Origin: a virus
Length of the DNA stretch: 64,000 nt
Reading direction: 5' to 3' (one strand)
IMG/VR virus record: IMGVR_UViG_3300001460_000004
Location: 162,483-226,482 of that record
Part shown: positions 14,107-53,600 of the stretch, piece after piece
Layout: each line of letters starts with the position of its first letter
How positions within the stretch are numbered: the first letter of the stretch is position 1
Made by a program: the position numbers and the translations under genes
The notes under the pieces: generated by a model
What the model was told of the DNA's origin: nothing
The model's database searches: none
The model's input: only the letters and a program-made list of their open reading frames with translations

Positions 14107-15495
14107 ATGCTTAAAGAATACAATCTCGATGTACAGAAATTGTTTTTAGAAATGATGTTAGAAGATGCACAAAGTTATGTGCGTATTCAAAACATATTCA
14201 ATCCAGAAAACTTTGATCGAAGCTTGATCGAAGTAGCTAAGTTCATTAAAGATCATTGTGATGATTACAAAACAATGCCAGAGATAGCTCAGATAAACTC
14301 CAGCACTGGCGTGACACTAAGTCCAGTACCTGATCTCAACAGTGGACACTTTGAATGGTTTATGACCGAGTTTGAAAACTTTACTAAAAGACAAGAACTT
14401 GAACGAGCAATACTAAAAGCTGCAGACTTATTAGAAAAAGGTACGTATGAGCCAGTTGAAAAACTTATCAAAGATGCAGTACAAATAAGTTTGACACGTG
14501 ATTTAGGAATAAATTATTTTGATGATCCACGTGCCAGGCTAACTGCTTTAAAAAACAACAATGGTCAAAACAGCACAGGCTGGAAAGCACTTGATAAAAT
14601 GTTGTATGGTGGGTTTAACAGAGGCGAACTACAAATATTTGCAGGCGGATCGGGCTCGGGCAAGAGTTTGGTTATGCAAAATTTAGCAGTTAACTGGATA
14701 CAAGCAGGACTCAATGGTGTGTACATTACACTAGAATTAAGTGAAGGCTTAACTGCAATGCGTGTTGATAGCATGTTAACGGGCACCAGTAGCAAAGACA
14801 TTTTTCGAGAGTTAGATAATGTTGAAATGAAAATTAAAATGGCTGGCAAAGCAAGTGGGCAACTACAAGTCAAGTACATGCCAGCACAAAGCAATGTAAA
14901 TGACATTAGGGCGTATTTAAAAGAATTAGAAATACAAAGTGGTTACAAAACAGACTTTTTGTTAGTTGACTATCTAGACTTATTGATGCCGGTTAGTGCA
15001 AAAGTTAGCCCAAATGATCAATTTATTAAAGACAAGTATGTAAGCGAAGAACTACGCAATTTAGCAAAAGAGTTAAATGTATTGTTTGTAACAGCATCGC
15101 AATTAAATCGTAGTGCAGTTGAAGAAATTGAATTCGACCACAGTCATATTGCTGGTGGTATTAGTAAAATTAATACAGCAGATAATGTGTTTGGTATATT
15201 TACTAGCAGGGCAATGCGTGAACGTGGGCGATATCAGATACAAGCAATGAAAACACGTAGTAGTAGTGGAGTTGGACAAAAAATTGATTTAGATTTTGAT
15301 ATAGCTAGTTTAAGAATTATGGATTGCGATGAAGATGCACAGCAAAGCAGTAGCGGGCATGGTAACATATACGAAAGCATTAAAGCAACAACAAATGTTA
15401 ACGACACAAGTAGTCCAGTTACCGAAACTCGAAAAGTTGAAGCAGATGTGCAAAGTAGTAAACTTAAAGGCTTGCTAGCATCAATGAAATCATGA
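14107..15495 (+). CDS. Replicative DNA helicase (gp41/DnaB-type)
   Basis: 462 residues with an N-terminal helical domain and a RecA-like core. Walker A GGSGSGKS lies at residues 180-187, and Walker B is in FLLVDYLDLL. A conserved ASQLNRSAVEE segment (sensor) and an Arg-rich end follow, as in DnaB-type hexameric helicases. A GGAG ribosome-binding site precedes the ATG. It travels 5'-3' on the lagging strand with the primase encoded just upstream. Confidence 0.93.
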   Translation: MLKEYNLDVQKLFLEMMLEDAQSYVRIQNIFNPENFDRSLIEVAKFIKDHCDDYKTMPEIAQINSSTGVTLSPVPDLNSGHFEWFMTEFENFTKRQELERAILKAADLLEKGTYEPVEKLIKDAVQISLTRDLGINYFDDPRARLTALKNNNGQNSTGWKALDKMLYGGFNRGELQIFAGGSGSGKSLVMQNLAVNWIQAGLNGVYITLELSEGLTAMRVDSMLTGTSSKDIFRELDNVEMKIKMAGKASGQLQVKYMPAQSNVNDIRAYLKELEIQSGYKTDFLLVDYLDLLMPVSAKVSPNDQFIKDKYVSEELRNLAKELNVLFVTASQLNRSAVEEIEFDHSHIAGGISKINTADNVFGIFTSRAMRERGRYQIQAMKTRSSSGVGQKIDLDFDIASLRIMDCDEDAQQSSSGHGNIYESIKATTNVNDTSSPVTETRKVEADVQSSKLKGLLASMKS

Positions 15496-16349
15496 TATTA
15501 CCTAAGTTAGTTATTCCCAGTAGAATTAATCAACATTGGATAGAGAGTGGAATGGACTCGTACGATCTCTGTGTTGACAAAAAACATTTTAAAAAATACC
15601 CACACACTGTAAAATATTATTACAACAGCCGTGGTTTTCGTGACCGTGAATGGCCTAACTCAGTAGATGATTGCATATGGTGTGTTGGTGATAGTTTTAC
15701 AGTAGGGTTAGGGGTACCACATGAACACAGCTGGAGTTATATACTAGGGGAACGTTTGAATAAACGCACAATAAATGTTAGCATGGATGGTGCTAGCAAC
15801 ACATGGATACGCAGGCAAGCTGTACAAATACTAGAACTACAACCCAAGTTACTAATACTACAATGGAGTTACATCACTAGACGAGAAGCAACTATGGATC
15901 AATTGTGGCAAAAGTTCTACGATAGTGTGAGAGATCCAAGTTGGCCAGAATGTAAAACCTATGCACAAATTTCAGAGTTACCCGAGTGGATAAGAACTGA
16001 ACTTGAAACAGTGCATAACTGTAGCAATGTTATGGAAAACATCGACGATACTAATAAGCGTCTACGTTATACTCATACCAGCGACGAACAAGACAAAGAA
16101 CATTTATACGATCAAATTACACAAGTTGAAAGTGCAGTAGATTCAACTTTATTAATACATAGTTTTGTGCCTCATTTTAGTCCAAATGGATATGCTGTTC
16201 CCATTCCTAAAAGTATACAACCAAGACATATACCTGAAATAACTAAATTAGATCTTGCTCGGGACGGTCATCACTATGATCGGTTAACTGCTGAACATTT
16301 TGTTGATCAGTTGGAGAATTTAATAACTGAGAACAGTGCCATTTCCTAA
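15492..16349 (+). CDS. SGNH-type hydrolase-like protein
   Basis: Block I reads CVGDSFTVGLGV (GDS near residue 61-63), block II includes NVSMDGASNTW, and the catalytic DxxH-type block is DGHHYD near the C-terminus. These mark the SGNH esterase fold. The start overlaps the helicase stop by four bases. The last 107 bases, which hold the catalytic His, are also coding on the other strand for the sulfotransferase-like gene. Confidence 0.78.
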   Translation: MILPKLVIPSRINQHWIESGMDSYDLCVDKKHFKKYPHTVKYYYNSRGFRDREWPNSVDDCIWCVGDSFTVGLGVPHEHSWSYILGERLNKRTINVSMDGASNTWIRRQAVQILELQPKLLILQWSYITRREATMDQLWQKFYDSVRDPSWPECKTYAQISELPEWIRTELETVHNCSNVMENIDDTNKRLRYTHTSDEQDKEHLYDQITQVESAVDSTLLIHSFVPHFSPNGYAVPIPKSIQPRHIPEITKLDLARDGHHYDRLTAEHFVDQLENLITENSAIS

Positions 16350-17504: not shown

Positions 17505-18767
17505 ATGAGCAAACTATTCCCTGGAAAAGAAATATTCCCTGTTAACTCGCCAACTGCTTGTATGTTAAAATGGAGTTGGAGTACAATAAACCTGCAGGAT
17601 GCATACACTAGTAGTTGTCACCGGGTAGAAGGTGAATATTTTGATATTGAACAATTTGATAATTTTCATAACTTACCTGAGAAAATCCTTGCAAGAGAAA
17701 AAATGCAACAAGGTATTTGGCCAGGCAAAGGATGCGAGTATTGCGAACGTGTTGAATGTGCCGGCGGCATCAGTGACAGGACAATGACACTAGAAAGGCA
17801 ACACACCCGAGATAAAATACCACCTGAGTTGCATGACAACCCCAATGCCACACATGTAACACCTACAATACTCGAAGTGTACTTTAATAATACGTGTAAT
17901 ATGAGTTGTGTGTATTGTGCACCAAGTGTAAGTAGTCAAATAAATGCAGAAGTTACAAAGAATGGTGGTTTCAGTGTAGGTAACATGCATGTTGAACCTT
18001 TTGTTACTAACAACACAAGGCAAAAACTATTAGTAGAAAAACTTTGGAAGTATCTAAGTACTAACAATCGATATCAACACATACGGCACTTTAATATATT
18101 GGGTGGTGAACCATTATTACAACAAGAGTTTGATCAGTGCATACAATTTTGGAATGACCATCCCAATCCTAGTTTAACTATTAATTTAGTGAGCAATTTA
18201 AACTTTGATCCTAAATTTTTTAAAAACAGAATAAACCAACTGCGCCAGTTAGTTGATGAATATAAAATATTTCAAGTTGAAATTACTGCAAGTTTAGATT
18301 GTTTAGGACCAGAGCAAGAATATGTTCGCCGTGGACTAAAACTACAAGACTATTGGGTACCAAACTTTGAATTTTTATTACAACAAGATTGGATCAAACC
18401 CAGTGTACACAGTTGTATAAGTAGTCTCACAATTAAAACATTTGATCAATTAGTCAACAAACTTAACAGTTGGAACCACCAATACAATACTACAATAGAT
18501 CATTCGTTTGATGTAGTAGTGGGGAAAAGTTGGCAAGAAATTGCTATGCATCCTATGTTTTTTGGACCTGGCGTATTTGACGAAGATTTTGATCGAATAA
18601 TTCAAGCTATGCCACAAGGACACAGTCGACAACACATGCAAGGAATTGCTGATAGTATTCAAGCCGCCCAACGTGATGAAGTTAAAATAAACCAGTTAAA
18701 ACAGTATTTACGGATACTAGACACTAGAAGAAATACAGATTATACAGAATTATTTCCTTGGCTTTAG
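17505..18767 (+). CDS. Radical SAM protein (twitch-type)
   Basis: The SAM cluster motif CNMSCVYC (CxxxCxxC) lies near residues 132-139. GGEP follows in ILGGEPLLQQEF. N-terminal cysteines (SSCHRVE, GCEYCERVEC) look like an auxiliary cluster-binding region. It is about the size of the gene at 3310 and shares its domain order, so the two are probably paralogues. Both lack a neighbouring precursor peptide, so a RiPP role is not supported. Substrate unknown. Confidence 0.85.
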   Translation: MSKLFPGKEIFPVNSPTACMLKWSWSTINLQDAYTSSCHRVEGEYFDIEQFDNFHNLPEKILAREKMQQGIWPGKGCEYCERVECAGGISDRTMTLERQHTRDKIPPELHDNPNATHVTPTILEVYFNNTCNMSCVYCAPSVSSQINAEVTKNGGFSVGNMHVEPFVTNNTRQKLLVEKLWKYLSTNNRYQHIRHFNILGGEPLLQQEFDQCIQFWNDHPNPSLTINLVSNLNFDPKFFKNRINQLRQLVDEYKIFQVEITASLDCLGPEQEYVRRGLKLQDYWVPNFEFLLQQDWIKPSVHSCISSLTIKTFDQLVNKLNSWNHQYNTTIDHSFDVVVGKSWQEIAMHPMFFGPGVFDEDFDRIIQAMPQGHSRQHMQGIADSIQAAQRDEVKINQLKQYLRILDTRRNTDYTELFPWL

Positions 18768-18811: not shown

Positions 18812-19069
18812 ATGCAGAGAAAGACTAAAAGCATACTTGAAGAATTAGATAGTATCTATAAAGATAAGTATGCCAATATTGACCGCCAACAAACTATTAA
18901 CAATAGGGCAAATCATGTTATTGCTAGTGCAATTCGTCTTTTAGAAGATTTTGAAACTCATTATAATGATGAAGATGCTCAAAAATTGCAACGCAAATTG
19001 CTCAATGCTATTCGGACCAAAGAACAAACTAAATTTACAAACACAATGAGACGAGTAAATGTCAAGTAA
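18812..19069 (+). CDS. Small helical conserved phage protein
   Basis: An 85-residue, Lys/Arg/Glu-rich protein predicted to be almost all helix, with no membrane segment. Function unknown. It is preceded by a late-type promoter and a good ribosome-binding site, and its end overlaps the nucleotidyltransferase gene by 11 bases. Confidence 0.7.
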   Translation: MQRKTKSILEELDSIYKDKYANIDRQQTINNRANHVIASAIRLLEDFETHYNDEDAQKLQRKLLNAIRTKEQTKFTNTMRRVNVK

Positions 19070-20972
19070 TATTCTTTTAACTGAAGGCGGTAATGTTTTT
19101 AAAGACCCTGAGGGCAATATTAAAACTCAGCGTATACAGCTTGCCGACATTGCCCCCACCATTAAATGGTTAGAAAACTTAACTGGATTACCATTAAGTG
19201 TTAACATGTTGGGAAGTACCGGGCAAAAACCTTCTAGTGGTGATTTAGATTTAGCAGTTGATATTAACAAAGTCAGCAAAGAAGAACTTGACAAGACTCT
19301 TACAGATTGGCTTGTAAAGTCTGGCGTTGCTCCAGAAGATGTACATAAAAAACCCAATGGCTGGGTTATAAAGACTGGCATTAACGTACACTTCCTCACA
19401 CCTATAGCCGGTAATCCTAAAAATGGTTATGTTCAAACTGATTTTATGTTTTTGCGTAAACCTGACTGGAGTAAGTTTATACTAACACAGGATCCCAACA
19501 GCGAATACAAAGGCGCAAGTCGTAATGTATTGTTAAACAGTATGGCTAAGAGCATGGGGTTGAAACTAAATCAAAATGATGGAATTATGTCACGTGAAGA
19601 TAATAGACTTATTAGTGATGATCCAGATGTTGTTGCAGAACTGTTACTAGGTAAGCCATACACTGCTCAAGACTTGATGAGTGTTGAAAAAATAATGAAA
19701 GCTCTCCAGAGTAATGGTAATCGAGACGCACTTATTGCTGATTGGCTAGCACATATGGAACGTCAAGGTACTCCATATCAAGGTGAAGTAAACGAAGATA
19801 ACGAAGTAAGTTTAATGGCTAGGTTGCGTGATAGAATTATCAATCAAGGCATGAGTGTTATTACCGAAAACCCATATAATTTATATGTATTAAAAGAAGG
19901 AGCACGTATTGCACATCCTGAGGATCTAATATTTGACTTAGGTGCTGCAGGAGCAAACGATGCAATGCGGCAATTACAAGCTACTAGCGATAGTCCTACT
20001 AGTGCTACAGTTAAATGGGACGGAAAACCTGCAATTATTTTTGGTAGAGACGAAACTGGGCAGTTTATACTCACTGATAAGAGTGCATTTGTGGCAACTA
20101 AATATGATGGTATAGCAAAATCACCCAAACAGTTAGCACAAATAATGAATATGAGAAAAGGTGACAGGACTGATTTAAATAAAATGTATGCTAGTATATG
20201 GCCAAAAGTAGAAGCTAGTTTACCTCAAAACTTTAGAGGATTTGTAATGGCTGACTTGCTATACAGTAATACACCTCCTTTAAAAAATGGAAATTATATT
20301 TTTAAACCCAATACTGTAACTTACAGTGTAAATGCAAATAGCGAATTGGGCAAACGTATTGCTGACAGTAGTGTAGGATTAGCAGTACACACTTACAAAA
20401 AAGGACCAGGTGACAGCGGAAGTCCTATACAAAGTTTAGATATAAATCCAGGTACAGGTGTTACCATATTTGGTAGCAAAGATGAAGGTATACAAAGTGC
20501 AAAATTAAATAGTGCATTATACAAACAAACAGCCGGCATGATAAAACAACATACTTCTGGTATCAACACACTGTTTGCACCAGAGAATTTGAGAAGTAAT
20601 AAAATAAGCAACTTACCCGAGCTTATGAAACAGTATGTTAATCACAGAGTACGCAGTGGGGGATTTAAAAACTTGCTCACAGATTTTGCCCCTTGGGTGC
20701 GAGCTAAAGCACCGACTAAAAGCGAACGTATACTTAAATGGGCAAATGAAAACGAAGCTGCATTCGTAGCCGTATTTGAGATATTTTTAAAGATAACCCA
20801 ACTCAAAAATGATTTAGTTGCACAGTTTGATAAACAAACAAAAGACGTACAAGCAAGCTATGATACTGGTGATCGTGGCCATGAAGGGTATGTAGCAAAC
20901 GATTTAAAATTTGTAGATCGTTTTAAATTTAGTAGAGCAAACTTTGCACAAAATAATCCTGACTTAACATGA
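19059..20972 (+). CDS. Two-centre nucleotidyltransferase: pol-beta-type plus ligase-like domain
   Basis: Residues about 40-140 resemble the pol-beta/CCA-type fold: GS at 52-53 in LGSTGQKPSSGDLDLAVDI, the DLD pair at 62-64 and a third acidic residue in VQTDFM (D128). A second centre has KWDGKPA at 319-325, the lysine-DG motif of nucleic-acid ligases and capping enzymes, followed by VMADLLY and YIFKPN. The linker carries no known motif. A full-length ligase would need motifs III to V, which I see only weakly. It may be a tRNA or RNA end-healing enzyme, but that is inference. Confidence 0.72.
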   Translation: MSSNILLTEGGNVFKDPEGNIKTQRIQLADIAPTIKWLENLTGLPLSVNMLGSTGQKPSSGDLDLAVDINKVSKEELDKTLTDWLVKSGVAPEDVHKKPNGWVIKTGINVHFLTPIAGNPKNGYVQTDFMFLRKPDWSKFILTQDPNSEYKGASRNVLLNSMAKSMGLKLNQNDGIMSREDNRLISDDPDVVAELLLGKPYTAQDLMSVEKIMKALQSNGNRDALIADWLAHMERQGTPYQGEVNEDNEVSLMARLRDRIINQGMSVITENPYNLYVLKEGARIAHPEDLIFDLGAAGANDAMRQLQATSDSPTSATVKWDGKPAIIFGRDETGQFILTDKSAFVATKYDGIAKSPKQLAQIMNMRKGDRTDLNKMYASIWPKVEASLPQNFRGFVMADLLYSNTPPLKNGNYIFKPNTVTYSVNANSELGKRIADSSVGLAVHTYKKGPGDSGSPIQSLDINPGTGVTIFGSKDEGIQSAKLNSALYKQTAGMIKQHTSGINTLFAPENLRSNKISNLPELMKQYVNHRVRSGGFKNLLTDFAPWVRAKAPTKSERILKWANENEAAFVAVFEIFLKITQLKNDLVAQFDKQTKDVQASYDTGDRGHEGYVANDLKFVDRFKFSRANFAQNNPDLT

Positions 20973-21652: not shown

Positions 21653-22120
21653 ATGGCAGTTTTTAACCCGTTTAACGGTGATGCACAACCGGTAATGAAC
21701 ACAGACGTTCATAACGGATCACAATCAGGTGCAATTTCATCAGCAGCATTGGTCCAAATGGACGGACCAAATCTAGACTTTTTTGGACTAACAGTTCAAA
21801 ACAGTGGTAACACAGACCAAGACCTACGCAGTGAGCTAGGACTTTACAGTAGTGCAGTGTTTGATCCAGGCATTTTTGTACAAATTTTGCAAGCAATTCA
21901 AACTAAAGGCACAGTTGCTAAGTACCAAGTTGAAGCATCAGCTGGTGGAGAAGCATCTTTTGCTGTATATCCACAAGGCGCATGGACACAAGCTACACTA
22001 CAAGCAGCTATCCAGGCACTGGGTACAGTTACAGTAACTAAATCAGATGGCACAACACGTACAGTTGACGTATCTGGTTCAGACGTAACTGACACAGGAT
22101 TTAAACTAGCAGCAGCATAA
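21653..22120 (+). CDS. Probable virion protein, late monocistronic gene
   Basis: 155 residues with no membrane segment, low charge and many Ala, Gln, Thr, Val and Gly. An unusually strong ribosome-binding site (TAGGAGA), an upstream TAAATA box and a downstream terminator all point to a highly made late protein. Sequence family not recognised. Confidence 0.75.
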   Translation: MAVFNPFNGDAQPVMNTDVHNGSQSGAISSAALVQMDGPNLDFFGLTVQNSGNTDQDLRSELGLYSSAVFDPGIFVQILQAIQTKGTVAKYQVEASAGGEASFAVYPQGAWTQATLQAAIQALGTVTVTKSDGTTRTVDVSGSDVTDTGFKLAAA

Positions 22121-25193: not shown

Positions 25194-25526
25194 ATGTTTA
25201 AATTTACTAAGCCAGCATTATCGAGAATAGTTAATGCTATTGAAGGCACTGACTACAAAGGTATTTTTGTAGATATTAAAAAAAGTGGTTGCACTGGATA
25301 TAGATATGTGTTACAATATGTAGATACAGTTGATGCAGAATGGAGTAAAAGCACTTCGGATGGCATTGACATTTATTGTGATAAAACACAATATTTTATT
25401 AATACTACTATTGACTATAAAAGTGATATCTTTAAGGAAGGTTTTGAATTTGTTAATCCTAATGAAAGTGCCCAATGTGGCTGTGGGGAGAGTGTAAACT
25501 TTGATATCCCATCGCTACGAGTATAA
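25194..25526 (+). CDS. A-type iron-sulfur carrier protein (IscA/HesB/SufA family)
   Basis: The three cysteines of the family are in place: SGCTGY near residue 33 and CGCGES near residues 95-99 (Cys-Gly-Cys). Length is 110 residues, typical of the family. These proteins carry Fe-S clusters to target enzymes. A strong AAGGAG site precedes the ATG. Together with IscU at 60361 and two radical SAM enzymes, it suggests that the virus supports Fe-S cluster supply during infection. Confidence 0.88.
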   Translation: MFKFTKPALSRIVNAIEGTDYKGIFVDIKKSGCTGYRYVLQYVDTVDAEWSKSTSDGIDIYCDKTQYFINTTIDYKSDIFKEGFEFVNPNESAQCGCGESVNFDIPSLRV

Positions 25527-26214
25527 AAATTTAACTAGAAAAAACGTTAACGGACAAAGATTGTACAGTACACCAGACGGTGAAGCACTACCTAGTGTTA
25601 CAACTATCCTTGATCGTACTAAACCTGAAGCTGCTAGGCAAGCACTAGCCAATTGGAAAAAACGTGTTGGTACAGTTAAAGCACAAGCAATTACAACTGA
25701 AGCTGCAAACCGCGGCACACGTATGCACACTTATCTTGAAAACTACGTTAAAGACGACACACTCGGAGAACGTGGTACCAATCCATTTAGTTGGAGTAGC
25801 CATGCCATGGCACAGCAAGTGGTTGAAAAAGGGTTGCCCAAGGCAGATGAATATTGGGGAGTAGAAGTACCTTTGTACTATCCCGGTGTATATGCAGGGA
25901 CTACAGATCTAGTAGGAGTTCATCAAGGCAGTGATGCCATTATGGATTTTAAACAAAGTAATAAACCTAAAAAAGAAGAATGGGTTGACGATTATAAACT
26001 ACAACTTTGTGCTTATGCTGAGGCTCACAATCAAGTATACGGTACTAATATACGCAAAGGTGTAATACTAATGTGTGTAAAACCAGAAGTTGACGACAAT
26101 ATGAACATGATAACTGCTCCTGTTTATCAAGAATTTATTATTGAAGGTGAAGAGTTTGAACTGTGGCGTCAGCAATGGTGGAAGCGTGTTGAGAAGTACT
26201 ATTTGGCTAAATAG
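25501..26214 (+). CDS. PD-(D/E)XK-type exonuclease
   Basis: Core motifs are GTTDLVG (catalytic Asp), MDFKQS (D-x-K) and KLQLCAYAEAHN (a QxxxY motif), typical of Exo VIII/RecB-like phage nucleases. The start is a TTG at 25501, overlapping the upstream gene by 26 bases, with a GGGGAGAG site nine bases before it. Such nucleases in T4-like marine phages probably act in recombination or host DNA breakdown. 237 residues, close to the family's usual length. Confidence 0.82.
   Translation: MISHRYEYKNLTRKNVNGQRLYSTPDGEALPSVTTILDRTKPEAARQALANWKKRVGTVKAQAITTEAANRGTRMHTYLENYVKDDTLGERGTNPFSWSSHAMAQQVVEKGLPKADEYWGVEVPLYYPGVYAGTTDLVGVHQGSDAIMDFKQSNKPKKEEWVDDYKLQLCAYAEAHNQVYGTNIRKGVILMCVKPEVDDNMNMITAPVYQEFIIEGEEFELWRQQWWKRVEKYYLAK
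26208..26213 (+). promoter_or_regulatory. T4-type late promoter (TAAATA)
   Basis: CTAAATAG overlaps the stop codon of the exonuclease gene. It is followed by a leader with an AGGTG site before the tailspike ATG at 26246. Confidence 0.55.
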
Positions 26215-52078: not shown

Positions 52079-52239
52079 TACGTTGGTATGACTATCCTGC
52101 TAGTTTTTTGTTTGCTTACATGATGCTAGCATTGTTTTTTAATTATGCAATGCTAGGAGGTATTCTAGCATATGGTGTTTATAAATTATGGATTGACATG
52201 TATTGTGATTGGCGCCACAAACAAGAACATGGATATTAG
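52075..52239 (+). CDS. Small membrane protein
   Basis: 54 residues with two adjoining hydrophobic segments (FLFAYMMLALFF and AMLGGILAYGVYKLWI) and a polar, basic end. It starts with ATGA overlap and overlaps the converging gene by four bases. Confidence 0.65.
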   Translation: MIRWYDYPASFLFAYMMLALFFNYAMLGGILAYGVYKLWIDMYCDWRHKQEHGY

Positions 52240-53600
52240 TCACTTACTTGATAACTAATTTTACCTTTATCTGCACCGGCGCTGCTTTTGCTTCTTAATG
52301 CTACTTTACCGTCAACTTTTGCTGGCCAAAATGCTTTAACACTAAGCTGACCTTTTTTAATGTTACTGTAAATTTGCACAAAGTTAAATCCTAAGCTGGT
52401 TAAAATACATTCTCTAAAGTTTGGAATTGCTCCAGCGTTTACTACTTTCATAACATCACTAATAACACTCCAGAAAACTTTACCACCGTCGGTTGCATTG
52501 CCTTCTTTGACTTTAGGACTTAATCTTGCCATTGCAGCTTGCATTATATCATCAGGTATGTTAGCATCTTTGCCTTTCATACTTGTTTGTATAGCTTGCA
52601 TGTCGCTTTCACTAAACGGAACTACGTTACGCCATGCTTCTGGTAATACATCAGGTTCGTTTTGTGCTATCCAGTTCATTAAATACATAGGTTGTGTAAT
52701 ACCAGTACCTTTTGTTTGTGCTACACGTATAAATTGATATGCTTCTGGATATTTACGTGATAAGAAATCAGGCATCTTCAAACTAGTTAATGCAGGAGGC
52801 GCACCTTTGCCAGCTGCTTTACTACTAATAGCTAATGCATTACCAGTTTGGTTGTTTAGCAAACTGTAGCTGTCTGCAATTGGATTGTTTGATGCTTTAG
52901 GAAAGTATAACAACAAGCTACCAAGATCGGTTCCAACCCATTGTAAAAAAGCATCTCGTTTATCAAAATCAGCAACACCTTTGATTACTGCTAGCACACC
53001 TAAAAATTCTGTAGCATAAAGTTCAATTGCTTTTATCTCTTCGTCACTCAACCCATCTGGTAGTGTAGCTGTTTGCCCTTGATCCAATTGTTTGGCCATA
53101 CTAATTATTGCTTCACCAACTTTACCAAGACTTTTCAACTGTTGATTACTTGCAAGTTTTTTGTACATATCATTGGCTCGAAACGCACCAGCCTGAAGCA
53201 TAGTATCAACATTTCCGCCAACTTTATCAACATCAACATCAACTGTATCTGAAAATACGTCACTAGGTTTAACTGCAATTTTTTGACGATCTAGACTACC
53301 AAATTCACTAGTCTTTTGCAACTGCGTATTAGTAACTATACCACCGTCATTTGTTTTTAATCGAATTATGCCAGTAGGTCCACTTTGTAACCATTTTTTT
53401 ACATTTTCGGCTTCGCCAGGATCAACAATAACATCATTTCCATCAACATGTTTAAATGGTGCATTGTTAAGTACCTTAAACAGAAATAATTCTTGCCGAG
53501 TCAAGGGCTTTTTAGTCTTTGGATTAAACACAGCACTTAACTTATTTGACGGTATTTGATTTGAAGCCAGATTAGCTTCTTTAAGATGTCTTATCTTCAT
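52236..53600 (-). CDS. Large minus-strand phage protein, possible virion protein
   Basis: 454 residues, no signal peptide or membrane segment, with long Lys/Asp/Ala-rich helical stretches. AGGAT lies before the ATG, and a minus-strand TAAATA (53641-53646) about 40 bases upstream suggests late expression. No family recognised. Confidence 0.7.
   Translation of the reverse strand: MKIRHLKEANLASNQIPSNKLSAVFNPKTKKPLTRQELFLFKVLNNAPFKHVDGNDVIVDPGEAENVKKWLQSGPTGIIRLKTNDGGIVTNTQLQKTSEFGSLDRQKIAVKPSDVFSDTVDVDVDKVGGNVDTMLQAGAFRANDMYKKLASNQQLKSLGKVGEAIISMAKQLDQGQTATLPDGLSDEEIKAIELYATEFLGVLAVIKGVADFDKRDAFLQWVGTDLGSLLLYFPKASNNPIADSYSLLNNQTGNALAISSKAAGKGAPPALTSLKMPDFLSRKYPEAYQFIRVAQTKGTGITQPMYLMNWIAQNEPDVLPEAWRNVVPFSESDMQAIQTSMKGKDANIPDDIMQAAMARLSPKVKEGNATDGGKVFWSVISDVMKVVNAGAIPNFRECILTSLGFNFVQIYSNIKKGQLSVKAFWPAKVDGKVALRSKSSAGADKGKISYQVSD

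What the first reader, a model, noticed from the sequence alone, without database searches (positions are those of the whole stretch)
19059..20972. Single protein with two nucleotidyl-transfer centres
A pol-beta-like GS/DLD centre (residues 52-64) and a ligase-type KWDG motif (319-322) occur in one 637-residue protein. Such a combination, nucleotide addition and sealing or adenylylation, would fit repair of RNA ends, for example after tRNA cleavage by host defences, but I do not know a characterised example.
Basis: partly seen in the sequence, partly recalled or inferred. Interest (0 to 1): 0.65.

Follow-up and report, generated by a model that had tools for sequence, protein, structure and literature searches.

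The report
Phage polymerase–ligase fusion, probably head-packaged
A large uncultured phage makes one protein that joins a polymerase-like enzyme to a strand-sealing enzyme, and its first few residues look like the tag that sends proteins into the phage head, so it may be injected with the genome to mend broken strands; I know of no characterised enzyme of this design.

Summary
Window 19059-20972 encodes 637 residues with two catalytic centres. GS52-53, D62/D64 and a third carboxylate, D128, are invariant in 51 aligned homologues, as are K319-W-D-G, D399, E609-G and K617. At least 597 stretches of viral contigs encode relatives, so this is no chance motif.

The N-half is best read as a minimal family X (Pol beta/lambda/AsfvPolX-like) polymerase, palm plus thumb: fold search, profile comparison and a weak Pfam thumb hit agree. 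The C-half is Pfam DUF6267, a ligase-superfamily domain of unsettled DNA or RNA type. In jumbo phages Atu_ph07, Phosso and PA5oct the counterparts of the two halves are separate genes in one cluster, which supports joint function.

All 101 distinct homologues read x-E|GG, with L or I two residues before the E in 100. That is the T4 prohead-protease site, and this phage encodes such a protease. PA5oct's separate NTase gene is annotated as a virion protein by mass spectrometry.

My reading: a head-packaged, injected fill-and-seal enzyme, with DNA slightly favoured over RNA as substrate. RNA repair remains a live rival. No activity has been shown.

The parts
19059..20972 (+). 637-aa PolX-like NTase fused to DUF6267 ligase-like domain
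   Evidence: ORF; Pfam; alignment; models
19059..19085 (+). Residues 1-9, predicted leader (MSSNILLTE), cut predicted between E9 and G10
   Evidence: [LI]xE|GG in 100 of 101 distinct homologues; protein-level selection; disordered in the model
19140..19484 (+). Palm-like region, residues 28-142: G52 S53, D62, D64, D128
   Evidence: Invariant residues; Foldseek PolX hits; hhalign to PolX
19500..19673 (+). Thumb-like region, residues 148-205 (YKGxxRNVLxNSxAKSxGxKLNQ)
   Evidence: PF14791 hit to residues 156-186, E 0.043, below cut-off; hhalign
19788..19904 (+). Linker between the halves, residues 244-282, largely poorly ordered
   Evidence: pLDDT below 50 at 244-250 and 261-282
19908..20951 (+). 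DUF6267 ligase-like domain, residues 284-631
   Evidence: PF19782, 150.5 bits; Foldseek ligase hits
20013..20024 (+). Ligase motif I, K319-W-D-G322
   Evidence: Invariant in 51 homologues and in 42 fused and stand-alone sequences
20253..20255 (+). D399, probable motif III position
   Evidence: Invariant
20877..20921 (+). Motifs IV and V: G607-x-E609-G-x-V612 and K617-x-V-x-R621
   Evidence: Invariant; aligned to the jumbo-phage ligases
18812..19069 (+). Conserved 85-aa gene overlapping the start of the fusion gene
   Evidence: Present in 104 of the related loci; homologous to PA5oct gp259, Phosso_444 and Atu_80
14107..15495 (+). DnaB-like helicase of the syntenic block
   Evidence: PF03796 E 1.4e-19; in 77 related loci
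21653..22120 (+). Conserved downstream gene of unknown function
   Evidence: In 107 related loci, offset +1 to +3
25501..26214 (+). PD-(D/E)XK nuclease of the syntenic block
   Evidence: PF12705 E 3.6e-6; in 35 related loci

Best explanation
It is a bifunctional strand-repair enzyme. The N-half, a minimal family X-type polymerase domain, adds nucleotides to a 3' end or across a short gap. The C-half, a KxDG ligase, takes AMP onto K319 and seals the strand. The protein carries a short leader, goes into the prohead, is trimmed by the phage's T4-type protease between E9 and G10, and is delivered into the host with the genome. I favour breaks, gaps or ends of the incoming DNA as the substrate. Shown here by computation: both centres, their conservation, the two fold assignments, the leader pattern and the protease gene. 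Inferred: catalysis, packaging, ejection and DNA as substrate. Separate estimates: two active transfer centres 0.8, head packaging 0.65, DNA as main substrate 0.45. The confidence given is for enzyme plus packaging, with the substrate left open.
For: Catalytic residues of both halves invariant. Foldseek of the full model against PDB: 15 of the top 17 hits are family X polymerases (Pol lambda, Pol beta, TdT, AsfvPolX). The PF14791 thumb profile picks only this protein in 230 kb, at the expected place, though weakly. Profile-profile match to PolX E 3e-5 with palm and thumb colinear, control comparisons below 1% probability. Plausible C-half PDB matches are all ligases; viral models include the PA5oct gp256 and Atu_ph07 ligases. 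Counterparts of the two halves are separate genes in one cluster in Atu_ph07, Phosso and PA5oct. Leader [LI]xE|GG in 100 of 101, selected at protein level; T4 gp21 cuts after L/I-x-E and short N-terminal leaders target proteins to the head (PMC9026906). The record encodes Peptidase_S77 (E 4e-27) and gp23 (E 9e-99). Phosso and Atu counterparts begin MGG, matching the predicted mature end. PA5oct gp253, the NTase counterpart, is annotated structural by ESI-MS/MS. In cyanophages the gene after DUF6267 begins with a T4-style leader ending in [LI]xE|A in 17 of 17 loci.
Against: No relevant sequence match to any solved structure. PF14792 palm is not hit and the thumb hit is below its cut-off. The GSFRRG and TGS motifs of Pol beta are not kept. 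The ligase half shows no region for a C-terminal OB-fold after motif V, unlike DNA ligases, and its PDB fold scores are weak. PA5oct mass-spectrometry flags also fall on UvsX and RIIB, so some are probably carry-over; PA5oct gp253 has no leader and the ligase gp256 is not flagged. N-terminal [LI]xE[AGS] is not enriched across the window's ORFs (2 of 83; internal background 2.3% per 16-residue stretch).
Confidence: 0.45

Rival explanations
1. RNA repair: the N-half restores nucleotides lost from cleaved tRNA and the C-half, an RNA ligase, seals it; packaging, if real, makes it available before host anticodon nucleases act.
For: Pol-beta-type NTases (RlaP) paired with RNA ligases are an established proposal for jumbo phages (PMC7824862). 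The Atu_ph07 neighbour of the NTase gene scores weakly as RNA_ligase (PF09414, E 0.002, below cut-off) and its model is among the C-half's viral matches. No OB-fold region follows motif V. The record has few tRNAs but also a tmRNA.
Against: N-half is PolX-like, not RlaP. PF09414 finds nothing in the record. Neighbours are DNA replication genes.
Confidence: 0.35
2. It acts in the cytoplasm during replication or recombination and is not packaged; the EGG start is only a structural N-cap and the L/I-x-E is incidental.
For: Sits beside the DnaB-like helicase. Leader motifs are not enriched genome-wide. Counterparts in Phosso, Atu_ph07 and PA5oct have no leader.
Against: P3 is L or I in 100 of 101 while P2 is free, in a stretch that the model leaves disordered; counterparts start at the same GG; PA5oct counterpart flagged in virions.
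Confidence: 0.3
3. One or both centres modify something else (for example protein or small-molecule nucleotidylation) and the protein is a host-takeover effector rather than a repair enzyme.
For: Pol-beta-type and ligase-type folds are used for other transfers; in cyanophages the partner of DUF6267 is a HIGH-type cytidylyltransferase, not a polymerase.
Against: Palm plus thumb is the polymerase arrangement; ligase partner genes in three jumbo phages.
Confidence: 0.15

Closest known systems
African swine fever virus PolX and other family X DNA polymerases
   Same: Palm with GS...DxD and a third Asp, followed by a thumb; little sequence ahead of the palm, as in AsfvPolX
   Different: Very low sequence similarity, no Pfam palm match, GSFRRG and TGS motifs not kept, fused to a ligase-like domain
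DUF6267 proteins of T4-like cyanophages (P-TIM40, S-PM2)
   Same: Same ligase-like domain with KWDG, GD, EGxV and KxVDR
   Different: There it stands alone followed by, or is fused to, a HIGH-type cytidylyltransferase; not to the PolX-like half in the records found
Atu_ph07 AUZ94877/AUZ94878, Phosso 446/447, PA5oct gp253/gp256
   Same: NTase counterpart and KxDG ligase in one gene cluster, with the same small 79-85-aa gene nearby
   Different: Two genes; the ligases are a divergent branch (KLDGS, KIDGY) with an extra region after motif V
RlaP-RNA ligase systems
   Same: A Pol-beta-type NTase working with an ATP-dependent ligase
   Different: No RlaP profile match; fold neighbours are PolX; not known to me as one polypeptide of this kind
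T4 internal proteins (IPI-IPIII, Alt)
   Same: Short N-terminal leader ending in L/I-x-E; T4-type protease in the genome
   Different: Leader is only about 5-9 residues and lacks the T4-style MKTYQEF-type sequence; the cargo is a different kind of enzyme

Membership tests
Family X DNA polymerase | Palm with three carboxylates in GS...DxD and hDh context | tested here: met
   G52 S53 D62 D64 D128 invariant; fold match
Family X DNA polymerase | Pfam DNA_pol_B_palm profile | tested here: not met
   No match in the own record at E 10; the same model also stays below its cut-off in all 14 control genomes
Family X DNA polymerase | Thumb subdomain | tested here: inconclusive
   PF14791 12 bits, E 0.043, below cut-off; colinear profile alignment
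Family X DNA polymerase | dNTP addition to DNA ends or gaps | not testable with these tools
   Needs an assay
RlaP NTase | PF10127 profile | tested here: not met
   No match in the own record at E 10
DUF6267 | PF19782 over its cut-off | tested here: met
   150.5 bits against a cut-off of 27
Covalent-nucleotidyltransferase ligase superfamily | Motif I KxDG with motifs IV (EG) and V (K) | tested here: met
   Invariant in 42 fused and stand-alone sequences
Covalent-nucleotidyltransferase ligase superfamily | Ligase fold | tested here: inconclusive
   Plausible hits are all ligases, but best PDB probability is 0.75 with low TM-scores
ATP-dependent DNA ligase | PF01068 profile and C-terminal OB domain | tested here: not met
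   No PF01068 match in the own record; only a short helix follows motif V in the model
RNA ligase (PF09414) | PF09414 profile | tested here: not met
   No match in the own record at E 10
T4-type head-packaged internal protein | N-terminal leader ending in L/I-x-E, with a T4-type prohead protease in the genome | tested here: met
T4-type head-packaged internal protein | Presence in virions, trimmed | not testable with these tools
   Only indirect: PA5oct counterpart annotated ESI-MS/MS

The most novel reading that the evidence does not exclude
A phage packages inside its head, and injects with its genome, a one-piece polymerase-ligase that fills and seals breaks in the incoming DNA: a virion-borne strand-repair machine in a widespread but uncultured phage group.
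Probability: 0.3. Interest if true: 0.82.

Novelty: new variant of a known kind. Interest (0 to 1): 0.62.

Why it matters
If right, it gives a function to DUF6267, a family found in over a hundred cultured phage records, most of them marine cyanophages, for which the paper library holds no mention. It would add strand repair to the functions that phages are known to inject with their DNA (from my own knowledge: anti-restriction proteins, ADP-ribosyltransferases and RNA polymerases). It makes a simple question testable: do some phages bring their own gap-filling and sealing enzyme in the particle? It would also be a compact polymerase-ligase in a single chain.

Tried and rejected
Sequence search of PDB with the protein and with both half-profiles gave nothing relevant. 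A cellular origin was looked for: the scan of bacterial and archaeal genome contigs found no relative at the sensitivity used. The idea that DUF6267 simply replaces the phage DNA ligase: P-TIM40, three cyanophage-type contigs and the own record lack PF01068, but three contigs with the fusion and the Vibrio phage have it, so replacement is not the rule. The idea that EGG is a ribosome-binding site was rejected because eleven codon combinations occur. Genome-wide enrichment of leader motifs was looked for and not found, so the leader argument rests on conservation within this family. Homology between the genes beside the DUF6267 or ligase genes of P-TIM40 (_181), Vibrio EniLVp02 (_205) and PA5oct (gp255), suspected by eye to be one nuclease family, was not supported. 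A scan of viral contigs with PA5oct gp253 found no relative. Two papers tried by DOI, on RlaP and on the PA5oct proteome, are not held. My automatic clustering chained some upstream leader-type proteins into the target cluster through L012; the residue counts are contaminated by this and I rely instead.

Full report
What was checked. The window lies in a 230,036-base virus record. The ORF at 19059-20972 is exactly as described, 637 aa. Pfam gives DUF6267 over residues 284-631 with 150.5 bits and no accepted family for the N-half. PHROGs gives phrog_455, unknown function.

Conservation. Fifty-one full-length homologues from viral contigs keep 111 columns unchanged; a 29-sequence subset is 46-54% identical to the window protein. 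Across 42 fused and stand-alone DUF6267 sequences the KWDG, D, EG and K residues remain invariant. At least 597 stretches of IMG/VR encode relatives. No cultured phage in the collection carries the fusion: the C-half matches 118 records and the N-half 14. No relative was found in bacterial or archaeal genome contigs.

The N-half. AlphaFold2 on 29 sequences gave mean pLDDT 85.4, with residues 1-10 and parts of 244-282 poorly ordered; pTM 0.55 means the placing of the two halves relative to each other is not reliable. In Foldseek against PDB, family X polymerases (Pol lambda, Pol beta, TdT, AsfvPolX) take 15 of the top 17 places, the other two being an archaeal DNA ligase; the best E-values are only about 1e-3. 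Searching the whole record with the Pfam thumb model gave this protein as the single candidate, at residues 156-186, E 0.043, below the curated cut-off. The palm model did not match. A profile of the NTase against a profile of bacterial, archaeal, phage and human PolX aligned palm and thumb in order, probability 73%, E 3e-5 for a single comparison; three control comparisons gave below 1%. I conclude that the N-half is PolX-like with probability about 0.8.

The C-half. A separate model had pLDDT 89.9 and pTM 0.86. Its plausible PDB matches were archaeal and human DNA ligases, trypanosome RNA editing ligase, LigD and T4 Rnl1, all weak. Among viral models the full protein matched the Atu_ph07 NTase (277 aa, E 1.6e-12), PA5oct gp256 (446 aa, probability 0.97), the Atu_ph07 'RNA ligase' (324 aa, 0.84), and DUF6267 proteins fused to a cytidyltransferase domain, including one of S-PM2 (gene identities assigned by length and phage). 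DUF6267 and the jumbo-phage ligases align over motifs IV and V, probability 29%, E 6e-4. No OB-fold region follows motif V. DNA or RNA as substrate is therefore open.

Gene neighbourhood. The 85-aa gene and the next conserved downstream gene occur in 104 and 107 of about 135 related loci, a DnaB-like helicase in 77 and a PD-(D/E)XK nuclease in 35; many loci are short contigs. PA5oct has the same order with separate genes: helicase, gp259 (homologue of the 85-aa gene), gp256 (KIDG ligase), gp253 (NTase), then the gp244 exonuclease. In Phosso and Atu_ph07 a KLDGS ligase-like gene overlaps the NTase gene. Adjacent genes in one lineage and one gene in another is good evidence that the two work together.

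The leader. Full-length homologues begin with a short stretch ending in x-E-G-G. In 101 distinct sequences P3 is L (67), I (33) or V (1), P2 takes twelve residue types, and E, G, G are invariant. Codons vary, so selection is on the protein. This matches the T4 gp21 cleavage rule, L/I-x-E, and in T4 the first ten residues of IPIII suffice to send it to the head (PMC9026906). The record encodes a Peptidase_S77 protease and gp23. Counterparts without a leader start at the same GG in Phosso and Atu_ph07. In cyanophages the gene after DUF6267 starts with a T4-style leader in 17 of 17 loci. One contig, L012, has an upstream leader-type protein fused in frame to the NTase-ligase; this could be an assembly error. 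I put packaging at about 0.65.

Mechanism. Shown by computation: two conserved centres, fold assignments, leader pattern, protease gene. Inferred: nucleotide addition by the N-half, AMP transfer and sealing by the C-half, trimming, packaging, ejection. DNA is favoured slightly because of the PolX fold, the helicase and nuclease neighbours and co-packaging with DNA. Against it stand the missing OB-fold and the weak RNA-ligase match of the Atu_ph07 neighbour. RNA repair on the RlaP model (PMC7824862) remains a strong rival.

Novelty. Each half is of a known kind. The fusion, its probable place in the head and a functional reading of DUF6267 are new as far as these tools show; the paper library holds no mention of DUF6267. 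I call it a new variant of a known kind.

Noticed in passing
L238:15197-15581 (record 15197-15581, outside the window): ARAGORN predicts a permuted tmRNA gene with tag ANDNYAPAMAIAA in this phage, along with tRNA-Trp and tRNA-Ser there and tRNA-Pro in the window. A phage-borne tmRNA is unusual.
   Followed up: no
L012:5419-7761: 780-aa frame in which an upstream leader-type protein (MQIYEITRQRLDE...) is joined in frame to the NTase-ligase, which lacks its first 30 or so residues; natural fusion or assembly error.
   Followed up: partly
L144, L182, L196 and other cyanophage-type loci, gene after DUF6267: HIGH-type cytidylyltransferase gene that starts M[RKN]F..F[IL]xE|A, a T4-style head-targeting leader; in S-PM2 and others a DUF6267-cytidyltransferase fusion exists.
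   Followed up: partly
L085:6128-7015: Vibrio phage EniLVp02 protein with an N-terminal UvsW.1 domain joined to a region similar to the cyanophage cytidylyltransferase, directly after its DUF6267 gene.
   Followed up: no
Related loci, gene just upstream of the fusion (for example L005, L035, L066): Diverse proteins of about 190-630 aa that start MQIHE[IL]..., MKVNEILTE|AG and the like, resembling head-targeting leaders; function unknown.
   Followed up: partly
window 52236-53600 -: 454-aa protein starting MKIRHLKE|ANLAS, the only other window ORF with an [LI]xE[AGS] start; no Pfam match.
   Followed up: no
window 25194-25526 and neighbours in related loci: Protein that reads like an IscA/HesB-type iron-sulphur carrier, with an IscU-like protein in 28 related loci; judged by eye only.
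   Followed up: no
window 17505-18767: Radical SAM-like protein (phrog_1802, E 1.9e-6) just upstream; related genes occur in about 60 of the related loci.
   Followed up: no
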